Positions 45,012-54,219 of a stretch of 64,000 nt of DNA are shown here, in pieces; the first letter of the stretch is position 1, and each line of letters opens with the position of its first letter. Made by a program: the position numbers and the translations under genes. This stretch comes from Parafrankia irregularis. GTDB lineage: Bacteria; Actinomycetota; Actinomycetes; Frankiales; Frankiaceae. Below the pieces are notes generated by a model. It was not told the DNA's origin and searched no databases. It saw only the letters and a program-made list of their open reading frames with translations. The DNA is taken from contig NZ_FAOZ01000003.1 in NCBI RefSeq assembly GCF_001536285.1, positions 372,001-436,000 on the forward strand. The letters are read 5' to 3'.

Positions 45012-45058
45012 CGGAGCCCCCGGCGCACCGGTCTGTTACTGGTGCGCCGGGGGCTCCG
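45012..45058. terminator. Perfect 18-bp bidirectional terminator hairpin
   Basis: Left arm 45012-45029 (CGGAGCCCCCGGCGCACC), 11-nt loop, right arm 45041-45058, fully complementary. On the minus strand it lies 52 bp after the stop of the 40-aa membrane-peptide gene, and beyond it transcription from the RHS side would be blocked. Confidence 0.8.
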
Positions 45059-45326: not shown

Positions 45327-45785
45327 TCAACGCTTTCCGTCGTACTTATTCTGCGCATCCCCCAGGGCGCGGACGACTGACTCGGCAATCGAGGAAGCGG
45401 GATCCTTTCGAAGGGTACGATACTCGTCAAGGCGCAGCTCTCGACCGCTTTTCAAGGATACGACGGGAATTTTCCAGGGAAGGATCTCTCCCGCATCGAC
45501 AACGATCGAGGAATCAATCTCATCCCAGCCGATCCGCCGACTCCTCTGAAGTCTGACAAAAGATACCCCAGTCTCTCCGATGACTACTCGAAGGCGAAGG
45601 ATCCTGACAATCGCGAAAATGGCTGTCGCTGCGATCAGGCCAGCGACGATTCGACCGCCGACGCCGCCGGCATCCTCAGACGGGACCATGAGGCCGGCTA
45701 CACCAACGAGTGCGAACCCAAACGCGGGAGCTGTCGCCAGCCAACGGTAGAGACGTGGCCGCAGAACCACACCGTCGACACTCAT
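45327..45785 (-). CDS. Two-helix membrane protein with PH-like domain, candidate immunity protein
   Basis: 152-aa protein. Two hydrophobic helices (about 14-34, LATAPAFGFALVGVAGLMV, and about 44-64, RIVAGLIAATAIFAIVRIL) are followed by a small beta-rich domain of bacterial PH type: RVVIGETGVSFVRLQRSRRI, GWDEIDSSIVV and PVVSLKSGRELRLDEY. ATG 45785 was chosen because GGTGGAGG sits 5 nt upstream. It begins 16 bp after the RHS stop on the same strand, the position occupied by immunity genes in RHS systems. A membrane immunity protein would fit a toxin tip with a hydrophobic helix. This is inference from position and topology. Confidence 0.75.
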   Translation of the reverse strand: MSVDGVVLRPRLYRWLATAPAFGFALVGVAGLMVPSEDAGGVGGRIVAGLIAATAIFAIVRILRLRVVIGETGVSFVRLQRSRRIGWDEIDSSIVVDAGEILPWKIPVVSLKSGRELRLDEYRTLRKDPASSIAESVVRALGDAQNKYDGKR

Positions 45786-45801
45786 CGTCGCCTCCACCTG
45801 G

Positions 45802-48800
45802 TCAGGGTGCGTAGTAGCTACGGTTCCGCCGCCTGGAGAAGCCACCGGCAAAGTTTGCGCCCCCGCTCAGGCCGCCTCCAGCCTTCAGGATCAACTTAGT
45901 GTACTTGCGGTCAAATCTTACCGCGCTGCCGGCCTTCTTCAGTGGCAGCCACACGCCGCCGTAGTTCATCGTCGAGAAGATCGCGTCACCGACGTTCGCT
46001 CTCAGCGACCTACGGAATCCCTGGTGCTGGATTCGGTAGGAGGCCCGAGTGACGAAGGCGAGGGTCTGGGCTCCGGCGCAAAGCAGGGGGCCGCCGAAGC
46101 AAGCCGCCAAGGCAAGTCCACCGGTGATCTGTCGGCGATACTTCCATGCCTTCTTCGCGGCCTTCTTCGCCCATCCGAACATGCGTCCGTCGAGGTCGAG
46201 GGTGTTATAGGGGTCCTGGTGGGCGTAGTCGTAGGGGTTGTCGGAGCCGCCGGGGACGGGGTCGGTGGAGAGGAAGCGGCCGAGGTTGGGGTCGTAGAGG
46301 CGGACGCCCATGAGGGTGAGGCCGGAGAGGGTGTCGCGGGAGCGTTGTTTGGCGCCGAGCCATCCGTAGCGGGCGTAGGCCGCGGAGCTGAAGTAGGGGA
46401 CGCCGAACTCGGTGGATTCGCTGTAGCTGGTGATGGAGCTGGCGGTGGTGGTGTCGTCGACGGTGGCGATGATGTCGCCGTGGAGGTTGGCGAGCTGCAG
46501 GGTGACCGCGCCGGTGTCGGTCTGGGTGGCGGCGAGGTCTCCGCCGATGCCGGTGATGTTGCGGGTCCAGGTTGCGCCGGAACCGATCCAGGCGGCGCTG
46601 TCGCCCGAGGCAGAGGTGTAATGATTGGTCGTGGTGGTGGCGCCGACGGTCCAGGAACGCAGCCGGCGGGCTGGGTCTAGGGCGTAGGTGCGGGTGGTAC
46701 CGGCGACGGTTTCGGAGGCGACGAGGTCGTTCACGTAGTAACCGATGGTCGCCGAGCTGCCGGCGGGTGGGTAGGGGTCGGTGGTGGTGCGACCGAACAG
46801 GTCGTAGGCGAAACCGGAGTTGGTGAGCCGGTCGGCCTGGTCATAGGTGAATCCGTAGCCGGTTGGGGTGGTGCTGGTGGAGCAGGTTCCTGTTTCGCTG
46901 CCGCCGGCGTCGGGATAGCTGGTGAGCGCGGTCCGGTTGGAATCCGGGTCGTAGGTGTAGGCGCGGGTGGTGCAGGAGGCGGGGCCGCCGTATCCGACCG
47001 TGTCGGCGACGGAGGTGAGTCGTCCGGAGAGGTCGTAGCCGAGGTTTTTCGCGGAGACCGGTGAGGTGTCGAGGCGGACCTGTTCGTGGATGGAGTTGGC
47101 CTGGGTGAAGGCCAGCCAGGGTGTGCCACTCTTGGCGTAGGTGAGGCTGGTGGGTTCGGCGTTGTTGTCGTAGCGGGTGGTGGCGACCAGACCGTTTGGG
47201 TAGGTCTGGGAGGTGAGTTTGCCGTCGGCGTTGTAGGCGGCGGTGAAGGTGGACGGTGCCGATCCGGCGCCGACGTTCAGGCTGGTCACCAGGCCGCGGT
47301 GCTCGTTCGCGCCGTCGTAGGTGTAGGTGTAGATGCCCTTTCCGTCCGTCGACGAGGTGACCTGGCTGTCGATGTCGTAGCCGGTGGTGGAGGTGTTCCC
47401 GTCGGCGTCGGTCTGGGAGGTCACCCGGCCCCAGCTGTCGTAGCCGGTGGTCAGGGTGATCCCGCTCGCGGTGGTGGTCGTGGCCTGGCCGGACGCCGGA
47501 TCGTAGCCGTAGGTCGCGGTGGGGATCGTGGTGCCGCCGTCCGCGGCCGGGCTCGCCACGACCGCCTCGGACGTCTTACGGCCGGCGGTGTCGTAGACGT
47601 AGGTGGTGGTCCGGGTGGTGCTGTTGACCGTCTCGACCTCGGTCAGGACCTGGTTGAGGCTGTTGTAGGTGTACGTCGACACCGGCAGCGGGTTGCCTGA
47701 GGAGGGCTGTGCGGCCGGGCCGCTGGTGCAGGCCAGCCCGGTGCGGGAGGCGTTCACGCAGCTACCGGAGCCGGTGGCGGTGTAGTAGGTGGTGACGGTG
47801 GTGAACGCGTCGGTGCCGGCGGCGTTCGCCTTCGGCTGGCGCGACTCGACCGTGTTCCCGGCCGCGTTGTAGTAGGTGGTGCGGACGATGTCGGGGGTGG
47901 AGCCGCCGCCCATCCAGGTGGCGACCGTCGTCGGCTTGCGCAGCGCCCAGCCGGAGGTGGACGGGTCGGCGCCGGTCTTCGCCTCGTAGCCGTTCACGGT
48001 CTTGCGGGAGTCGACGTCCGTCCCGTTGGCCAGGCGGGTGCTGGTGGTGATCGTGGTTGCCAGCCGGTACGGGTCGGTCGAGGAGGGGGCGCCCTGGTCG
48101 TAGTCGGTGTGCTCGTGCTGGCGGGCGGAGTAGCGGGCGCCGGCGTTGTCGACGATCTGGTGGGTCGGGCCGTAGGTGTCGGTGACGGTCACCCCGTCGG
48201 AGCTGTAGACGGTCTGTTCGTCGAGCAGTTGGGAGCGGGCCGCGGAGCTGGTCAGTGCCGCCACGGTCATGTCCGTGTCGGCTGTCGGGGTGAGTGCCTG
48301 GTTGCGGTTCTCCGCAGACAGGCTGCGGATGGTGTTGCCCTTGCTGTCGTGTTCGGTGGTGCTGATCTGCCAAGCACCGTTGCCGTAGGAGGCGGAGTTG
48401 ACCTGTTTGCCGTCGGCGTTGAGATAGGTCAGGTCGGCGTAGGGCCAGTCCGCCGCGGCGGGGACGGCTGCGGGGACGTGGCCGGCCGGGAAGACCGCCG
48501 CCCCGTACAGCGGGATGTCGGTCTGCGCCCAGTTCGCGACCTGGGCCGGGGCCAGGTCGATCGGCGCCCCCGTCCCGGTCACGGCCACGTCGTAGACGAC
48601 CGTCTGCGTCGCGGTTCCCCCGCCGGGCGCGGGCCGGGAGGCGGTGTACAGGCGGGCGGCGCCGTCGTAGGTCAGGGTCCAGGTCGCCTGCCCGGGTGGG
48701 GTGATCTGGGCGAGGCGGCCGGCGGCGTCGTAGGCGTAGGTGGTGGTCAGGCCGGTGCGGGGGTCCTTCGCCGAGCGCAGCTTGCCGGCCGAGTCGTAGG

Positions 48801-51800
48801 CGTAGGCGGCCACGTTGACCGGGGCGTCGCCGTTGAGGGACATCGCGACCGAGGTCAGCCGGCCGGTGTAGTCACCCCAGGTCGCCGGGTCGGTGCCGGT
48901 GCCGGTCGCGGTGGTCGAGGCGGCGTAGCCGATGGTCAGCGCCCGGCAGCCCGCGACCAGGGTGGTGCAGGTGACGCCGGCGGGTACCGGGGCGAGGATG
49001 CGGGTGGTCCGCCCGGAAGAGTCGGTGGTGAAGGTGGAGGTGGTGTTCGTGCCCGGTTCGATGACCTGGCTGACCCGCCACACCGTCGCTCCGCCCACGG
49101 TCTGCGCGGCGTAGATCGTGCGGGTGCCGTCGACCTCGGTGAGGGTGAACTGGGTGGCCGAGTCCTTCACCAGCTTCGACCCGTCCGTCGCGACGTCCCC
49201 GACACCGATGTAGGTGTACGGGTAGGTGCCGGAACCGGTGCGGACGTAGATGTCCTGCACGCCGTTCTCGTCGGTGAGCGCTGCGTAGCCGTCGGTCGCT
49301 GTGTAGTCGGTGAGGGTGCGGTCCGCGGAGCCGGCGTCCGGGCCGGGCATGCTCGCCGTCCACCCTGGGCCGAACACCCCGACTGTGCCGCCCACCGCGA
49401 GGGTGGTGAAGGAGCGGCCGACGGTCAGATCGCCGGTGTAGGTCGGCATCGAAACGTCGGTCGCCGAGACCGAGTAGTCGCCGGTCAGCAGTGCGACGGT
49501 GCCGGGGCCGACCGGCTGGGTGGCGTCGGCGTCGGCGAACGCGCGCCGGGCGAACTGCACAGTGTGCAGTGGAGCGCAGGACACGGTGTTCGCCGCGTCC
49601 CGGAAACATGCCTGAATCTGCACCGGTCCGTCGGGTGCGCCGAACCCGGTCAGGGTGGTGTTGAGGTCCCAGGTCAGCTTGTCGAACAGACCCGACCCGT
49701 TACGGTTCATCGGCCAGGTGGGGTGGGTCGACGTCCCGGCGATTGTCACGTCGGCGGTCGGGACGTCGCTCCACGCCGTGGCGGTGTTGGTGCCCATCCG
49801 GTACTGGAACGTCACCTTCGTCTGCGCCGCGGGAGCCTGCCCTTCCAGCGTGGCGTACCGCTGGACCCGTACGCCCTCGGCCGGCTGCGCCAGCGCCCCT
49901 GCGCCGACCCCGAACCCGTACGACACCACCGACGAGAGGTTGCCCGACTTGTCCTTGGTCCGCAGGTAGAGGGTGTGCAGCCCACCGCCCGGGCTCAGCG
50001 TCGGGGTGGTGGTCGCCGTCGTCTCCGTGGCCGGTGAGGGCTGGTCGAGGCCGTAGAGGAACGACTGGGTGTCGCCACCCGGGGACGTCCAGGAGAAGGT
50101 GCCGGAGGTGGCCGTGCCCCAGCCCCCGGACGCCCAGGCCGCGGAGCTCAGACCGGTCGGCGCGGCGGGGGCGGTGGTGTCGACGGTGAAGGGGATCCAC
50201 CCGGACCAGGCCTGTGAGTAGTCGACCCCGTCGTAGGCGCGCGACCGCCACTGATACGCCGTCCCGTTGGTGAGCAGGCCCGAGGGCACTGTCCACGAGC
50301 CGACCGAGTTCGACGTCACGTTCGTCACCGACCCACTGGTGACCATGGTCGTCCCGGCGGAGTTCCACACCTCGAAATCAAGCCGGACGGGGCTGCCTTC
50401 GGGATCCAGCGAGGCGCCCGACAGCGTCGGGGTGGTGGTGTTCGTCAGCACCATCGCCGGGGTGCCGCCGCACTGCGCCGAGCACGGCTTGGTGAAACGG
50501 CCGGCGACCGTGCCCGGATACGAGTTGTACGTGGTGGAGATGTTCGGGGCCAGGAACGTGTCGCCCGAGTAGAAGTACTTGAACTGGTTGGCATCCGACT
50601 CGTTCGGCGCCCGCAGGGTGAGGGTTTCCGGTGATGGATAGCCGTTGTGCGCCCAGGCGTCGACCAGCCCGGTGATGTCGATGTTCGTGCCGCCCGAGGA
50701 GGTGCACGATCCACCGTTGTTGAAGGTGGCGCTCCCCCAGGTGATCCCGTCCGCGCTGGGTTGGGTGGCCCAGGTGGTGCCCGCGCCCATCCCCCCGGCT
50801 CCCTGCACGGTCGTCGGCTGGGTCGTGCAGGTCGCGGATCCTGCCTGCCACAGGTTCAGCACGGCGGAGGTGACGTGCTTGCCCTTGATGGCCGAGTCGT
50901 CGAAGCGCAGGAAGGACCGGTTCACCGCCGCGCCGGCGTAGTTCCCGACCCGCAGGTACTCGTAGGTGTCGTAGTTCGTGGTCGTGTAAACGTTGTTGAC
51001 GTCGGTGTCGAGGTTGTCGGCGAGGGTGGCCGCCGGGTCGATCGTGACCGGGTACTGCCGGGCCGGGTCGGTGAGCCAGCCCTTGTCCGGCTTCAGCGCC
51101 AGCGTGGGCCTGTCCGCCTTCGCGGTGTCGAGTGTCGCGGCGACGTCGCGGACCCGGTCGGGAAGCTTGCTGGTCGCGTTGACGTGGGAGTCCCACATCA
51201 GCGGCACGGGCGAGCGTGCGGTCACCTTCCCGCCGGCGGACATCCGCAGCTCCCCACCGGGGGTACGGGTGGCGGTGACGCCCTTCAGCCGCATCGGCAG
51301 GGACAGTGCCGCCTGCGCGGCGGCCGGGGTGTGCGCGACGATCTGCACGTCGTAGCCGGTCGGGAAGACCTTGACGACCAGGTCGGTGTCCTTGGCGACG
51401 CCCTTGTAGGTGGCGGTGTTGTCCTTCAGCTCCGGGGCGGGCAGTGCACCTGGCCAGCCGAAGGCGATCTCCCGGTCACCGTCGACGAGGGTGGCGACGT
51501 CACCGGCCTTCGAACCGCCGGCCGACAGCTCGACACCCGCCTTCGTGACCTTCGGCGTGACCTTCCCGTCGGCGAGGACCAGTGTCGAGTCGACGTCGAC
51601 CCAGTCCTCCCCTCGGCGCACCCGACGGATGCCCGAGTACGAGTCGACGGTGACCGTGCCATCCGGGTTCACGAACGTCGAGGTCGTCTCCGTCCGCTCA
51701 CCGGTGACCTCGATACGGCGCTTCTCCGCACGTGCCGTGAGCTGCGCGGAAACAAAATCAGGCCGTTCCGCCGGCCCGGCCGCGGCAGGAGCCGGCGCTG

Positions 51801-51942
51801 GGGCGGGATCCTCGGTTGCGGCCTGCGCGGCCTTCTGGCCGGTCGGCAGAAAGTCGACAACCGTCGCCGCCAGCAGCGCGGCTAACAGCACACACAAGAA
51901 CCGGGATGTCCACCCGCGACGCAACACGCCATGCCGCTGCAC
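45802..51942 (-). CDS. Secreted RHS-repeat polymorphic toxin with unique C-terminal tip
   Basis: About 2046 aa. A signal peptide occupies the N-terminus (FLCVLLAALLAATVVDF, then a site near KAAQA/ATED). There follow a conserved N-terminal wall, a DNRLRE-like domain (TYEYLRVGNYAGAAVNRSFL), fibronectin-like segments and many YD/RHS repeats (YAYDAAGRLAQI, YGYDPASGQ, TYTYDGANEHRGL). The RHS core signature GVRLYDPNLGRFLSTDPVPG precedes NPYDYAHQDPYNTLDLDG. The last 127 residues (45805-46185) are a unique tip with a hydrophobic helix (TGGLALAACFGGPLLCAGAQ) and a basic tail, the expected toxin. GTG 51942 is chosen (GGAG 5 nt upstream); a TTG at 51978 has none. The membrane PH-domain gene follows 16 bp later. 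Confidence 0.9.
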   Translation of the reverse strand: MQRHGVLRRGWTSRFLCVLLAALLAATVVDFLPTGQKAAQAATEDPAPAPAPAAAGPAERPDFVSAQLTARAEKRRIEVTGERTETTSTFVNPDGTVTVDSYSGIRRVRRGEDWVDVDSTLVLADGKVTPKVTKAGVELSAGGSKAGDVATLVDGDREIAFGWPGALPAPELKDNTATYKGVAKDTDLVVKVFPTGYDVQIVAHTPAAAQAALSLPMRLKGVTATRTPGGELRMSAGGKVTARSPVPLMWDSHVNATSKLPDRVRDVAATLDTAKADRPTLALKPDKGWLTDPARQYPVTIDPAATLADNLDTDVNNVYTTTNYDTYEYLRVGNYAGAAVNRSFLRFDDSAIKGKHVTSAVLNLWQAGSATCTTQPTTVQGAGGMGAGTTWATQPSADGITWGSATFNNGGSCTSSGGTNIDITGLVDAWAHNGYPSPETLTLRAPNESDANQFKYFYSGDTFLAPNISTTYNSYPGTVAGRFTKPCSAQCGGTPAMVLTNTTTPTLSGASLDPEGSPVRLDFEVWNSAGTTMVTSGSVTNVTSNSVGSWTVPSGLLTNGTAYQWRSRAYDGVDYSQAWSGWIPFTVDTTAPAAPTGLSSAAWASGGWGTATSGTFSWTSPGGDTQSFLYGLDQPSPATETTATTTPTLSPGGGLHTLYLRTKDKSGNLSSVVSYGFGVGAGALAQPAEGVRVQRYATLEGQAPAAQTKVTFQYRMGTNTATAWSDVPTADVTIAGTSTHPTWPMNRNGSGLFDKLTWDLNTTLTGFGAPDGPVQIQACFRDAANTVSCAPLHTVQFARRAFADADATQPVGPGTVALLTGDYSVSATDVSMPTYTGDLTVGRSFTTLAVGGTVGVFGPGWTASMPGPDAGSADRTLTDYTATDGYAALTDENGVQDIYVRTGSGTYPYTYIGVGDVATDGSKLVKDSATQFTLTEVDGTRTIYAAQTVGGATVWRVSQVIEPGTNTTSTFTTDSSGRTTRILAPVPAGVTCTTLVAGCRALTIGYAASTTATGTGTDPATWGDYTGRLTSVAMSLNGDAPVNVAAYAYDSAGKLRSAKDPRTGLTTTYAYDAAGRLAQITPPGQATWTLTYDGAARLYTASRPAPGGGTATQTVVYDVAVTGTGAPIDLAPAQVANWAQTDIPLYGAAVFPAGHVPAAVPAAADWPYADLTYLNADGKQVNSASYGNGAWQISTTEHDSKGNTIRSLSAENRNQALTPTADTDMTVAALTSSAARSQLLDEQTVYSSDGVTVTDTYGPTHQIVDNAGARYSARQHEHTDYDQGAPSSTDPYRLATTITTSTRLANGTDVDSRKTVNGYEAKTGADPSTSGWALRKPTTVATWMGGGSTPDIVRTTYYNAAGNTVESRQPKANAAGTDAFTTVTTYYTATGSGSCVNASRTGLACTSGPAAQPSSGNPLPVSTYTYNSLNQVLTEVETVNSTTRTTTYVYDTAGRKTSEAVVASPAADGGTTIPTATYGYDPASGQATTTTASGITLTTGYDSWGRVTSQTDADGNTSTTGYDIDSQVTSSTDGKGIYTYTYDGANEHRGLVTSLNVGAGSAPSTFTAAYNADGKLTSQTYPNGLVATTRYDNNAEPTSLTYAKSGTPWLAFTQANSIHEQVRLDTSPVSAKNLGYDLSGRLTSVADTVGYGGPASCTTRAYTYDPDSNRTALTSYPDAGGSETGTCSTSTTPTGYGFTYDQADRLTNSGFAYDLFGRTTTDPYPPAGSSATIGYYVNDLVASETVAGTTRTYALDPARRLRSWTVGATTTTNHYTSASGDSAAWIGSGATWTRNITGIGGDLAATQTDTGAVTLQLANLHGDIIATVDDTTTASSITSYSESTEFGVPYFSSAAYARYGWLGAKQRSRDTLSGLTLMGVRLYDPNLGRFLSTDPVPGGSDNPYDYAHQDPYNTLDLDGRMFGWAKKAAKKAWKYRRQITGGLALAACFGGPLLCAGAQTLAFVTRASYRIQHQGFRRSLRANVGDAIFSTMNYGGVWLPLKKAGSAVRFDRKYTKLILKAGGGLSGGANFAGGFSRRRNRSYYAP

Positions 51943-52653
51943 GCCAACTCCGTTCGTCCAGGCGAAACGCTGGAACAAAAGCAGGACAGCGCGGTCGGAT
52001 GGCCGCTTCTGCCAAACACCGCGATGGGCACCAAAAAATGGCAGAGGCGAAGACCGGTGGACAAGTGTGGCCCGGACGGGAGCCCTGGGGTAGGGGAACG
52101 GAAAGTAGTGAGCCCATCGCAGGCGCCGGGCGCCTGATCACGGAAGGTAGGCGGGACGCAAAAAATAAAATGCACATAACAGGCATTTCGCCCATGGGTA
52201 CTCGCGCTAAGCGACGAGTGCGGGCACGCTGCGTGCCATATGAGATGGAGCACACAGTGGTGAGTTACCTGGATGAAACATTCATCTGCTGGATGCAGCC
52301 CTGAGGGCGTTGCCATCCACCGCCCGAGTGGATCGGTCTGGTCACCCTTCCGGGGAGGACGGCGTACCGAGGGGGCGGCGGCGAGCCACTGTGGTTCGTG
52401 AACTGCGGAAACACATGAGCAGTACGGAATTTTTCTCGTTCCGGTAGCAGGGATTGCCGGCTCATGCCATAGTCTCCGTCGGCCCCACATGGGCGGGGGG
52501 TGGACGCGTCCGCAGCCGAAAACTGCAGGTCCGCTGTGTGGCCACAGGTTCAAGCCGGGAGACGGCCATCGCGTCTTCTCTGCAACGGCGAGCGCCTGGA
52601 AGCCGAAACGCATGCGTGCCTGACCGGTTCGTGAGCACAGGAGCATCCATCGC
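51943..52653. other. Intergenic region upstream of the RHS gene and the IS fragment
   Basis: This gap of about 710 bp between the divergent RHS gene and the transposase fragment has no coding frame I trust. It contains an AT-richer patch near 52155-52185 (GCAAAAAATAAAATGCACAT). The RHS promoter should lie in its left half. Composition is lower in GC than the metabolic regions, consistent with acquired DNA. No terminal inverted repeats or target duplications could be identified. Confidence 0.45.
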
Positions 52654-52945
52654 ATGAGCCGTCCGACCAGATATTCACCGCCCTTCCGGGCCCGGGCGGT
52701 GGCCCAGGTCGCCCAGGTCCGATCCCGGCACCGCTCGGAATGGTCGGCGATCGAGAGCGTCGCGGATGCCCTCGGCATCAGCCGCGAGGCGCTTCGGGGC
52801 TGGATCCGTCAGGCCGAGGCCGAACCCGAGGTCGAGCGAAGGCGACCGTCGACGTCCGATCGACAGCAGGCGGAGATCCGCAGGCTCACCGCGGACAACG
52901 CAAGGCTACGCACGGTGTTACGCGTCCTGCGTGCCAGCAACGGCG
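52654..52945 (+). pseudogene. IS3-family OrfA transposase fragment
   Basis: Frame begins MSRPTRYSPPFRARAVAQVA, then EWSAIESVADALGISREALR and GWIRQAEAEPEVE, followed by the leucine-zipper-like AEIRRLTADNARLRTVLRVL; this is the HTH and coiled coil of IS3 OrfA. Similarity stops near RASNG, where OrfA would continue, and no OrfB follows. The frame then runs into unrelated sequence. A broken insertion sequence. Confidence 0.8.
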
Positions 52946-52949
52946 ATGC

Positions 52950-53049
52950 ACGCGCCACCGAACCGGGCCAGGGCCCTGTCGACGACGGTGCAGATGGTCG
53001 CCAGGCCGGTGCGGGGCCGCCAGAGCGCGAGGTGGTCGACCCACACGCC
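52950..53049 (-). pseudogene. Possible IS21-type IstA transposase remnant
   Basis: On the minus strand this 100-bp stretch reads VWVDHLALWRPRTGLATICT, then VVDRALARFGGA, which resembles the integrase-core region of IS21 IstA-like transposases (W-x-x-RTGLATI...DRxLxRFGGAP). Neither end of such a gene is present. It abuts the IS3 fragment on one side and the RHS tip on the other. The family assignment is from memory of the motif. Confidence 0.4.
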
Positions 53050-53072
53050 CTTTCAGCTCCTCGGCCCACCCC

Positions 53073-53261
53073 CACCACGGCTGGCTCGGCGCCAAACAAC
53101 GCTCCCGCGACACCCGCCGCGGCCTCACCCTCGTGGGCGTCCGCCTCGACGACCCCAACATCGGCCGCTTCCTCTCCACCGGCCCCGACTCCGGCGGCCT
53201 CGACCTCGACGGAAAATCATCCTGGCGGAAAGCGTGGCGCTGGGTACGCGGAGGATGGTAA
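53073..53261 (+). pseudogene. Orphan RHS core/tip fragment
   Basis: HHGWLGAKQRSRDTRRGLTL, then VGVRLDDPNIGRFLSTGPDS, GG, LDLDGKSSWRKAWRWVRGGW and a TAA stop. It matches the RHS core of the gene at 45802-51942 (GWLGAKQRSRDTLSGLTLMG, GVRLYDPNLGRFLSTDP) but lacks about 17 residues of the NPYDYAHQDPYNT segment and has a different, very short tip. It lies on the opposite strand to the complete gene. It is not preceded by a start of its own and looks like a displaced orphan tip. Confidence 0.8.
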
Positions 53262-53301
53262 GGCGTGAGAATCGCCAGATGTTACGCCGGTCGGGAGATG
53301 G

Positions 53302-53760
53302 ATGCCTGGAGGCCGGTGGTGGTGGATGCACTTCCTGGCGGGCGCGGGCTCGATGGTTGTTGCCGCCGGTCTCCACCCCTGCCGGCTGCGCGCCCGTCGT
53401 AGGTTGACGGTAGCCCTGGTCGGCCTCGCCTGCGTAGCACTGGCCTCGGCCGTTGGAGAGCTGGCGGCGCTCGGCACTGCCGGCGGGGTGTTCCTGCTCG
53501 CGATCGGATGGGTTTTGTGGAGCTGGCAGCTCCGAATCGCCGGAGATCTCGGATACCGGCGGGCGGCCGAAGTTCCCCCGCCAGTCAGGGTGCGCTCGGA
53601 GTGGCTGCCGTTGAATCCCTTCTTTGCAATCCGCTATATCGTCAGGATGAAGAACGATCCGTACTCGAAACGGGTGACGGAGCCCGAATACTTTGATTTC
53701 GACGGGTTGTGGGAGGCTCTGCTGATCCGTGTGAAGCATCTCGGCAGGAGAAGGCGGTGA
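53302..53760 (+). CDS. Membrane protein, candidate immunity/toxin-associated (152 aa)
   Basis: 152-aa protein with two or three hydrophobic helices (MHFLAGAGSMVVAAGLHPC; RLTVALVGLACVALASAVGE; AALGTAGGVFLLAIGWVLW) followed by a soluble domain of about 80 residues including PLNPFFAIRYIVRMKNDPYS, EYFDFDGLWEALLIRV and a basic end. Start ATG 53302 has GGGAG just upstream; ATG 53326 is an alternative. It directly follows the orphan RHS tip. Length and topology resemble the PH-domain membrane gene after the complete RHS gene, but the sequences are not obviously related. No family recognised. Confidence 0.6.
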   Translation: MPGGRWWWMHFLAGAGSMVVAAGLHPCRLRARRRLTVALVGLACVALASAVGELAALGTAGGVFLLAIGWVLWSWQLRIAGDLGYRRAAEVPPPVRVRSEWLPLNPFFAIRYIVRMKNDPYSKRVTEPEYFDFDGLWEALLIRVKHLGRRRR

Positions 53761-53775: not shown

Positions 53776-54219
53776 GTGGACGGTGAAGGGCCCGCAGCAC
53801 GCTCGGCGACCGCGGCGATGAGCACGCCGGAAATTGTCCTCGAGCTGCGTCGGGTGTTGCCGCCAGCGGCTCAGGTCACCTGGAATCATGTCTTCGGCAA
53901 CGCTGATCACTTCGATCTCTTCATTGAACGCGCCGACGGATCCACGCTCTTCGCGACCTTCGCCACCTGGATCGACGAGGCTCGGGTCTCGATTGACGAC
54001 TACATCTTCGAACCCGTCCCGAACGAGGTGTTCACCGAGTTCGCCAGGATGTTCGTCGCCGATCTTTTCACGATCCGCGCCACCCGGAGGCCGTTCCTGC
54101 GTTGGCTCCAGTTTTCAATGGTGGTCGACGGAGTCTCCTACTCCTCGTTCCGAAGAGCCAAGAACATCGAGCCCTGGGAGGAGTCTCACCTGAGTTTCGC
54201 GACCGAGCCGGACGGCTGA
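53776..54219 (+). CDS. Small soluble protein after the orphan RHS tip, candidate immunity (147 aa or 133 aa)
   Basis: Compact acidic/aromatic protein: IVLELRRVLPPAAQVTWNHV, FGNADHFDLFIERADGSTLF, ATWIDEARVSIDDYIFEPVP and LRWLQFSMVVDGVSYSSFRR. Size and composition suit an immunity or small alpha/beta protein, but I recognise no family. Starts possible at GTG 53776 or ATG 53818; neither has a strong ribosome site. It follows the membrane gene by 15 bp, so both are likely co-transcribed. It converges on the ligase gene at 54298. Confidence 0.6.
   Translation: MDGEGPAARSATAAMSTPEIVLELRRVLPPAAQVTWNHVFGNADHFDLFIERADGSTLFATFATWIDEARVSIDDYIFEPVPNEVFTEFARMFVADLFTIRATRRPFLRWLQFSMVVDGVSYSSFRRAKNIEPWEESHLSFATEPDG

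What the first reader, a model, noticed from the sequence alone, without database searches (positions are those of the whole stretch)
45327..51942. Secreted RHS toxin with unrecognised tip and adjacent membrane PH-domain gene as candidate immunity
A signal-peptide-bearing RHS protein of about 2046 aa ends, after the conserved core, in a 127-residue tip I do not recognise. The tip has one hydrophobic helix and a basic tail. Sixteen bp downstream lies a two-helix membrane protein with a PH-like domain. Seen directly: order, spacing and hydrophobicity. Known: RHS proteins carry variable C-terminal toxins paired with immunity genes. Inferred: a membrane-targeting toxin neutralised by a membrane immunity protein.
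Basis: partly seen in the sequence, partly recalled or inferred. Interest (0 to 1): 0.65.

Follow-up and report, generated by a model that had tools for sequence, protein, structure and literature searches.

The report
RHS toxin tip with membrane immunity
A Frankia-type soil bacterium carries a large secreted RHS protein whose last 127 residues are a swappable, very basic toxin-like tip, followed 16 bases later by a membrane protein with a PH-type domain that travels with this tip in other genomes and is therefore probably the antidote.

Summary
In detail: a 2046-aa secreted RHS protein (51942-45802, minus strand), a 127-aa tip, a 16-nt gap, then a 152-aa protein with two TM helices and a PH fold.

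The tip is a true variable cassette. A paralogue in the same genome matches residues 25-1919 at 69% identity and stops exactly where the tip begins. Among 40 distinct RHS core ends, almost all from Frankiaceae, only three carry this tip. Every full-length close relative of the PH gene lies behind this tip, or behind the last 30 codons of one cut by an insertion element. Distant tips with two-TM, PH-related neighbours occur in two further actinomycete families. Two other RHS tip classes in Frankiaceae also have two-TM bPH_6 neighbours. So a cognate toxin/immunity pair is very likely, and two-TM PH proteins look like a recurring immunity scaffold.

That the toxin acts on the membrane is only partly supported: related hydrophobic segments recur in tips with other C-termini, and a hydrophobic stretch also precedes a colicin-E3-like RNase tip, so it may be an entry module. 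My best reading is neutralisation at the membrane, with a membrane-acting tip (about 55%) ahead of a cytoplasmic one. Toxicity and protection are untested.

The parts
45802..51942 (-). Secreted RHS protein, 2046 aa (GTG start; in-frame TTG at 51978)
51817..51942 (-). Probable Sec signal peptide, residues 1-42 (ends AQAA)
   Evidence: read from the sequence; no predictor run
50554..51009 (-). DNRLRE domain
   Evidence: NCBIfam NF033679, E 4.8e-24
46186..46380 (-). RHS repeat-associated core ending ...DPYNTLDLDG; D1894 and D1916 are candidates for the Rhs aspartyl-protease pair, predicted cleavage after R1920 (by analogy with the Tse5 pair D1141/D1164)
   Evidence: TIGR03696 1.3e-11; terminal DxxG in 40 of 40 core ends, Asp pair at this spacing in 36 of 40; Tse5 residues from PMC10684867
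45805..46185 (-). Variable C-terminal tip, 127 aa, net charge +22 (putative toxin)
   Evidence: paralogue identity stops at residue 1919; conserved with its neighbour in F. gtarii
46036..46185 (-). N-terminal module of the tip (about 50 aa): basic/aromatic stretch then hydrophobic C-x6-C segment, shared with tips that have other C-termini
45805..46035 (-). Tip-specific C-terminal part (about 77 aa; YRI.QGFRRSL.AN.GDAIFS...GGVW... Gly-rich, basic tail), presumed toxic domain
   Evidence: conserved only within this tip class
45327..45785 (-). 152-aa protein with two TM helices and PH fold, putative cognate immunity protein; 16-nt gap after the RHS stop
53063..53259 (+). Remnant of a second RHS core end (GWLGAKQRSRDT...LDLDGKSSWRKAWRWVRGGW*), joined to an IS3-like orfA remnant (52654-52960)
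53302..53760 (+). Membrane protein, probable orphan immunity gene of another RHS tip class; relatives lie directly behind RHS tips in two other genomes

Best explanation
This is a Gram-positive secreted polymorphic RHS toxin with its own immunity gene. Step 1 (inferred from signal and domains): the RHS protein is exported through the Sec pathway and its YD-repeat shell holds the tip. Step 2 (inferred from the conserved Asp pair and DxxG): the shell cuts the tip off after R1920. Step 3 (inferred): the basic/hydrophobic Cys-paired N-terminal module of the tip engages the membrane of a neighbouring cell. Step 4 (inferred, the weaker step): the approximately 77-residue C-terminal part inserts into or perturbs the cytoplasmic membrane; it has one invariant acidic residue and no invariant histidine, so a metal-dependent nuclease is unlikely. 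Step 5 (pairing shown by linkage; protection inferred): the 152-aa protein sits in the producer's membrane with its PH domain on the cytoplasmic side and stops the tip there. Tip and immunity move together as an exchangeable cassette, and the immunity gene can outlive the toxin. Likelihoods: cognate toxin/immunity pair about 0.85; neutralisation at the membrane about 0.75; the tip itself membrane-acting about 0.55.
For: Exact core/tip border: own-genome paralogue 68.6% identical over residues 25-1919, then none. Tip variability: 40 distinct core ends, tip classes with mostly unrelated C-termini and different neighbours, including a PF09000 RNase tip with a small soluble ORF behind it. Linkage: tip plus PH gene in the window and twice in Frankia gtarii; in G019 an insertion element left 30 codons of the tip beside an intact PH gene (56% identical); in G010 a PH fragment follows an RHS core. 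Distant pairs in two other families, G035 and G346; the profile of their two neighbours aligns with the PH profile over 106 columns, E 1.1e-5, probability 82%. Independent tip classes with two-TM bPH_6 neighbours: L117 (5.7e-7) and L028 (1.7e-5), both above gathering score; L025 weaker. PH genes diverge faster (40-41% identity to F. gtarii) than tips (63-66%). G+C falls from core 70% to tip 63% to PH gene 59%, as for an exchanged cassette. F. gtarii has an array of RHS main gene, immunity, orphan core-tip, second immunity.
Against: No toxicity or protection data. The hydrophobic segment is only moderately hydrophobic, and related segments are found in tips with other C-termini and soluble neighbours. 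The window tip has no strict glycine-zipper motif. The tip model is of no use (pLDDT 43), so an unusual enzyme fold is not excluded; the high positive charge also suits a nucleic-acid-acting toxin. bPH hits of the window protein are below Pfam's gathering score; the PH call rests partly on a pLDDT 66 model made from three sequences. Frankia gtarii supplies two of the three intact tips.
Confidence: 0.55

Rival explanations
1. The tip is a cytoplasm-acting toxin (for example RNA- or DNA-directed). Its hydrophobic Cys-pair module only carries it across the membrane, and the two-TM PH protein is an entry blocker or membrane-bound sequestering immunity protein.
For: Related N-terminal modules occur on tips with other C-terminal halves, similar hydrophobic segments on tips with soluble neighbours, and a PF09000 RNase tip also starts with a hydrophobic stretch. 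The tip is very basic (+22). Two-TM immunity proteins have been proposed to block toxin uptake (PMC3482391). CDI toxins carry separate entry and toxic domains (PMC11630599).
Against: No invariant His and only one invariant acidic residue in the Frankiaceae tips. Tips that look enzymatic in the census have soluble neighbours, not two-TM PH neighbours.
Confidence: 0.3
2. The PH gene is not an immunity gene but an accessory of the tip, such as a membrane chaperone or export partner, or simply part of the cassette.
For: The two-TM PH layout is a general bacterial membrane protein (distant relatives found without RHS). In T7SS neighbourhoods a PH-like protein, EsaC, is named among system components (PMC3482391).
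Against: It follows each tip class with its own divergent version, in the immunity-gene position. It persists intact after the toxin is destroyed (G019), as expected of immunity and not of an export partner.
Confidence: 0.08
3. The tip is a harmless anchor or structural end of the RHS protein and the neighbour is unrelated.
For: No homology to any known toxin family.
Against: Tips swap on one core, including a recognised RNase domain; orphan tip arrays; strict linkage.
Confidence: 0.05

Closest known systems
Tse5/Tsi5 of Pseudomonas aeruginosa
   Same: RHS shell holding a small C-terminal toxin without recognised enzymatic function, Asp-dyad self-cleavage, cognate immunity protein with two predicted TM regions; toxin forms pores and depolarises (PMC9637101, PMC10684867)
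   Different: Tse5 is loaded on the type VI machine; here Sec export from a Gram-positive is inferred. No tip sequence relation was tested beyond the library searches. A PH domain in Tsi5 is not mentioned in the passages read.
WapA-type secreted RHS proteins of Gram-positives
   Same: Sec-secreted RHS protein with polymorphic C-terminal toxin and downstream immunity gene (from general knowledge; PMC12704120 listed but not read)
   Different: Tip matches no profile in Pfam, NCBIfam, PHROGs or PADLOC; the immunity candidate only weakly matches general bPH families
EsxX with ExiCD (Staphylococcus T7SS)
   Same: Secreted membrane-depolarising tip countered by membrane immunity proteins that also occur as orphans (PMC12744356)
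   Different: LXG protein, glycine zipper (absent in the window tip by the strict motif), immunity is a pair of polytopic proteins; 'PH domain' does not occur in that paper
CDI ionophore toxins and CdiI
   Same: Entry module plus membrane-acting domain; immunity proteins highly polymorphic (PMC11630599)
   Different: CdiA carrier, Gram-negative, five-helix ionophore domain; no sequence relation found
bPH_6 (PF10756) and bPH_10 (PF23494) proteins
   Same: Two TM helices then PH fold; weak profile matches and fold match
   Different: General families; not described as immunity proteins in the held papers

Membership tests
RHS polymorphic toxin | YD/RHS repeats and RHS-associated core | tested here: met
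   PF05593 1.1e-16, TIGR01643 1.6e-18, TIGR03696 1.3e-11, all above cut-off
RHS polymorphic toxin | Sharp change from conserved core to variable tip | tested here: met
   paralogue identity stops at residue 1919; 40 core ends
RHS polymorphic toxin | Self-cleavage Asp pair and cleavage motif | tested here: met
   sequence only: D1894/D1916 and DxxG, pair at this spacing in 36 of 40 core ends; cleavage itself not tested
RHS polymorphic toxin | Cognate immunity gene directly downstream, linked to the tip type | tested here: met
   linkage:
RHS polymorphic toxin | Tip toxic, neighbour protects | not testable with these tools
   needs expression tests
Orphan RHS tip/immunity arrays | Displaced core-tip fragments with own immunity genes next to the main gene | tested here: met
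   F. gtarii L025, G009 L118; decayed remnant in the window at 53063-53760
Bacterial PH family bPH_6 | Score above Pfam gathering threshold | tested here: not met
   window protein 18.3 bits against 22; PH neighbours of other tips L117 (29.9) and L028 (25.2) pass
PH-fold superfamily | PH beta-barrel with C-terminal helix | tested here: met
   predicted model only: VIA Z 9-10.5 to PH/PTB/FERM-F3 folds, pLDDT 66; Foldseek E-values not significant
Tse5-like pore-forming RHS toxins | Pore formation and depolarisation | not testable with these tools
   no measurement
Glycine-zipper membrane toxins (EsxX, TelE) | (G/A/S)xxxGxxxG or GxxxGxxx(G/S/T) in the tip | tested here: not met
   no motif in the window tip or in the two F. 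gtarii tips

The most novel reading that the evidence does not exclude
Two-TM PH-domain proteins are a general immunity scaffold for a superfamily of RHS tips in Actinomycetes. They were recruited from a common bPH_6 membrane protein that may itself be the toxin's membrane docking target, so that immunity works as a decoy or competitor and the PH domain clamps the cytoplasmic end of the inserted tip.
Probability: 0.12. Interest if true: 0.72.

Novelty: new variant of a known kind. Interest (0 to 1): 0.48.

Why it matters
Secreted RHS toxins of actinobacteria are poorly characterised compared with those delivered by type VI secretion. This locus defines a tip class without a database name together with its probable antidote, and shows two-TM PH proteins following several unrelated RHS tips, with related pairs in three actinomycete families. 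If confirmed, it would add a PH-type immunity scaffold, help to predict antidotes for many unannotated RHS tips, and give a simple two-gene test of how a Gram-positive RHS toxin reaches or crosses the membrane.

Tried and rejected
Toxin/immunity libraries: no hit for the tip. PDB by sequence: nothing for the tip; only chance-level hits for the PH protein. Plasmid records and IMG/VR contigs: no relative of the tip. A genome-contig scan with the single tip found none; with an alignment, only Frankia gtarii. Tip structure prediction too poor for a fold search. Glycine-zipper idea: rejected for the window tip by strict motif; shuffles give 0.96 such motifs on average, so the motif is weak evidence anyway. 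The idea that the hydrophobic helix by itself shows a membrane toxin: rejected because related segments occur on other tips. Direct profile match of the window PH family with the tip2-type (probability 1.6%) and L117 (4.3%) PH neighbours was not significant, so those are counted as separate recruitments or very distant relatives. Foldseek alone gave no significant PDB match for the PH model. Promoter and terminator scans: nothing. Paper searches for PH-domain immunity proteins: none found in the held library.

Full report
What was checked. The minus strand of the window carries a 2046-codon RHS gene (GTG 51942 to TGA 45802) and, 16 nt further on, a 152-codon gene (ATG 45785 to 45327) behind GGTGGAGG. 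The RHS protein has a Sec-like N-terminus, a DNRLRE domain, RHS/YD repeats and an RHS-associated core that ends in ...DPYNTLDLDG. Behind that lie 127 residues with no match in Pfam, NCBIfam, PHROGs, PADLOC or PDB sequences.

The tip is a real variable cassette. A second RHS protein in the same genome (contig C1) is 68.6% identical over residues 25-1919 and the match ends exactly at the core/tip border, whereas Frankia gtarii stays about 76% identical almost to the end of the tip. I collected 40 distinct RHS core ends, almost all from 35 genomes of the window's family. All end in DxxG, and 36 keep an Asp pair spaced like the Rhs protease pair described for Tse5 (PMC10684867). The tips fall into many classes. 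Some are recognisable: three related tips, one of which hits PF09000, the colicin E3-type RNase domain. Only three carry the window's tip. The core is thus a delivery platform with exchangeable ends.

The neighbour travels with the tip. In 35 family genomes, and again in 394 class genomes, full-length close relatives of the 152-aa protein occur in four places: the window, two places in Frankia gtarii (matched to handle G004 by shared sequence) and G019. In the first three a tip of this class precedes it; in F. gtarii the tip and PH reading frames overlap by a few bases. In G019 the tip is reduced to its last 30 codons; the DNA just upstream resembles an ISAs1-type transposase (my reading by eye), while the PH gene remains open and 56% identical. 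In G010 a PH-gene fragment follows an RHS core. More distant bPH proteins are common in Actinomycetes and none of those examined has an RHS core motif within 1.5 kb. The linkage is therefore specific to this subfamily. The F. gtarii PH proteins are 40-41% identical to the window's, against 63-66% for the tips, the divergence expected of immunity proteins (compare CdiI, PMC11630599). G+C falls from 70% in the core to 63% in the tip and 59% in the PH gene, consistent with import of the cassette.

The pair extends beyond Frankiaceae. A profile of the tips finds a distant tip in G035, another family (6.5e-14), followed directly by a 165-aa two-TM protein. A profile of the tip's N-terminal module finds another in G346, a third family, again followed by a 163-aa two-TM protein. 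The profile of these two neighbours aligns with the window's PH family over 106 columns (probability 82%, E 1.1e-5). Separately, other tip classes of the same family carry two-TM bPH_6 proteins: L117 (bPH_6 5.7e-7) and the tip2 class in F. gtarii, G027, G021 and G033 (1.7e-5 for G027, weaker or partial for the others). Direct profile comparison between the window family and these is not significant, so they may be separate recruitments of the same kind of protein.

Fold and topology. AlphaFold2 on three sequences gives two helices, six or seven strands and a C-terminal helix (pLDDT 66, pTM 0.48). Foldseek is not significant on its own, but the structural aligner places the model on PH, PTB and FERM-F3 domains at Z 9-10.5 over 80-92 residues, including bacterial PH structures 3dcx and 3hsa. 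The Arg-rich flanks of the helices and the acidic loop between them suggest both ends inside and the PH domain in the cytoplasm (positive-inside rule; inference). The tip could not be modelled (pLDDT 43).

How it most likely works. By analogy with secreted RHS proteins, the protein leaves by the Sec route, the shell releases the tip by its Asp pair, the basic/hydrophobic N-terminal module of the tip meets the target membrane, and the C-terminal part kills. The producer is protected by a membrane protein. The strongest argument for a membrane site of action is the membrane location of the antidote, as in Tse5/Tsi5, where a C-terminal RHS tip without recognised enzymatic function forms pores and its immunity protein has two predicted TM regions (PMC9637101). 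The counter-argument is that the same kind of hydrophobic Cys-paired module precedes other C-termini: the N-terminal module of the window tip matches a tip with a WD40 neighbour (L087, 54% over 26 residues), and tips with small soluble neighbours (L089, L097, L106) have comparable hydrophobic segments. The module may be for entry, with the immunity protein acting at that step. I give the membrane-acting tip about 0.55 and the cytoplasmic rival 0.3.

What is known and what is new. RHS toxins with variable tips, downstream immunity genes and orphan arrays are well known (PMC3967940; PMC3482391). Two-TM immunity proteins are known (Tsi5, Imm17, CdiI). I found no PH-type immunity protein in the held papers, though most subscription papers are not held. 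I therefore rate the locus as a new variant of a known kind: an unnamed tip class with a PH-type membrane antidote, the latter recurring behind several RHS tip classes.

Shown: gene order, tip border, variability, linkage, survival of the antidote gene beside a destroyed toxin, PH-like fold in a model. Inferred: secretion, cleavage, toxicity, protection, site of action.

Window neighbourhood. A second, decayed RHS end lies on the plus strand at 53063-53259, joined to an IS3-like orfA remnant. The membrane protein behind it (53302-53760) has relatives directly behind RHS tips in G009 and G027, so it is probably an orphan immunity gene of a different tip. The organism belongs to the family of Frankia gtarii, Frankiaceae; the genus of the window was not determined.

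Noticed in passing
window 53063-53760 (+): Decayed second RHS core end followed by a 152-aa membrane protein; relatives of the latter sit directly behind RHS tips in G009 (43%) and G027 (44%), so it looks like an orphan immunity gene of another tip class.
   Followed up: yes
window 53776-54219 (+): 147-aa ORF (or 133 aa from ATG 53818) right behind the orphan immunity gene, no family hit; possibly a second immunity gene.
   Followed up: partly
L087 (G028) and L123 (G020): Two related RHS tips (68% identical, two genera) are each followed by a WD40-type beta-propeller protein. A 2012 survey (PMC3482391) stated that beta-propellers had not been found among immunity proteins.
   Followed up: partly
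L086, L099, L109: Related RHS tips, the first with a PF09000 colicin E3-type RNase domain (1.3e-8); L086 and L109 are followed by small soluble ORFs.
   Followed up: partly
L025/L065 (Frankia gtarii contig 99): Orphan array: RHS-tip1, PH immunity, core fragment with tip2, second two-TM bPH-like protein, further core fragment.
   Followed up: yes
L005/L024 near the core/tip border (Frankia gtarii contig 101): In-frame TAG (YDYAH*DPYNT) between an RHS core and an otherwise intact tip; downstream PH gene intact.
   Followed up: partly
L132 (G258): RHS protein with a related hydrophobic tip followed by a 114-codon open frame with three hydrophobic segments, possibly a non-PH membrane immunity protein.
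   Followed up: no
window 45012-45058: 21-nt inverted repeat, 95% complementary, 5-nt loop, about 270 bp behind the PH gene and between convergent genes; possibly a two-way terminator.
   Followed up: no
L082 and L118: Tips with a CFGxC motif followed by related-looking soluble 122-130-aa ORFs without any Pfam hit.
   Followed up: no
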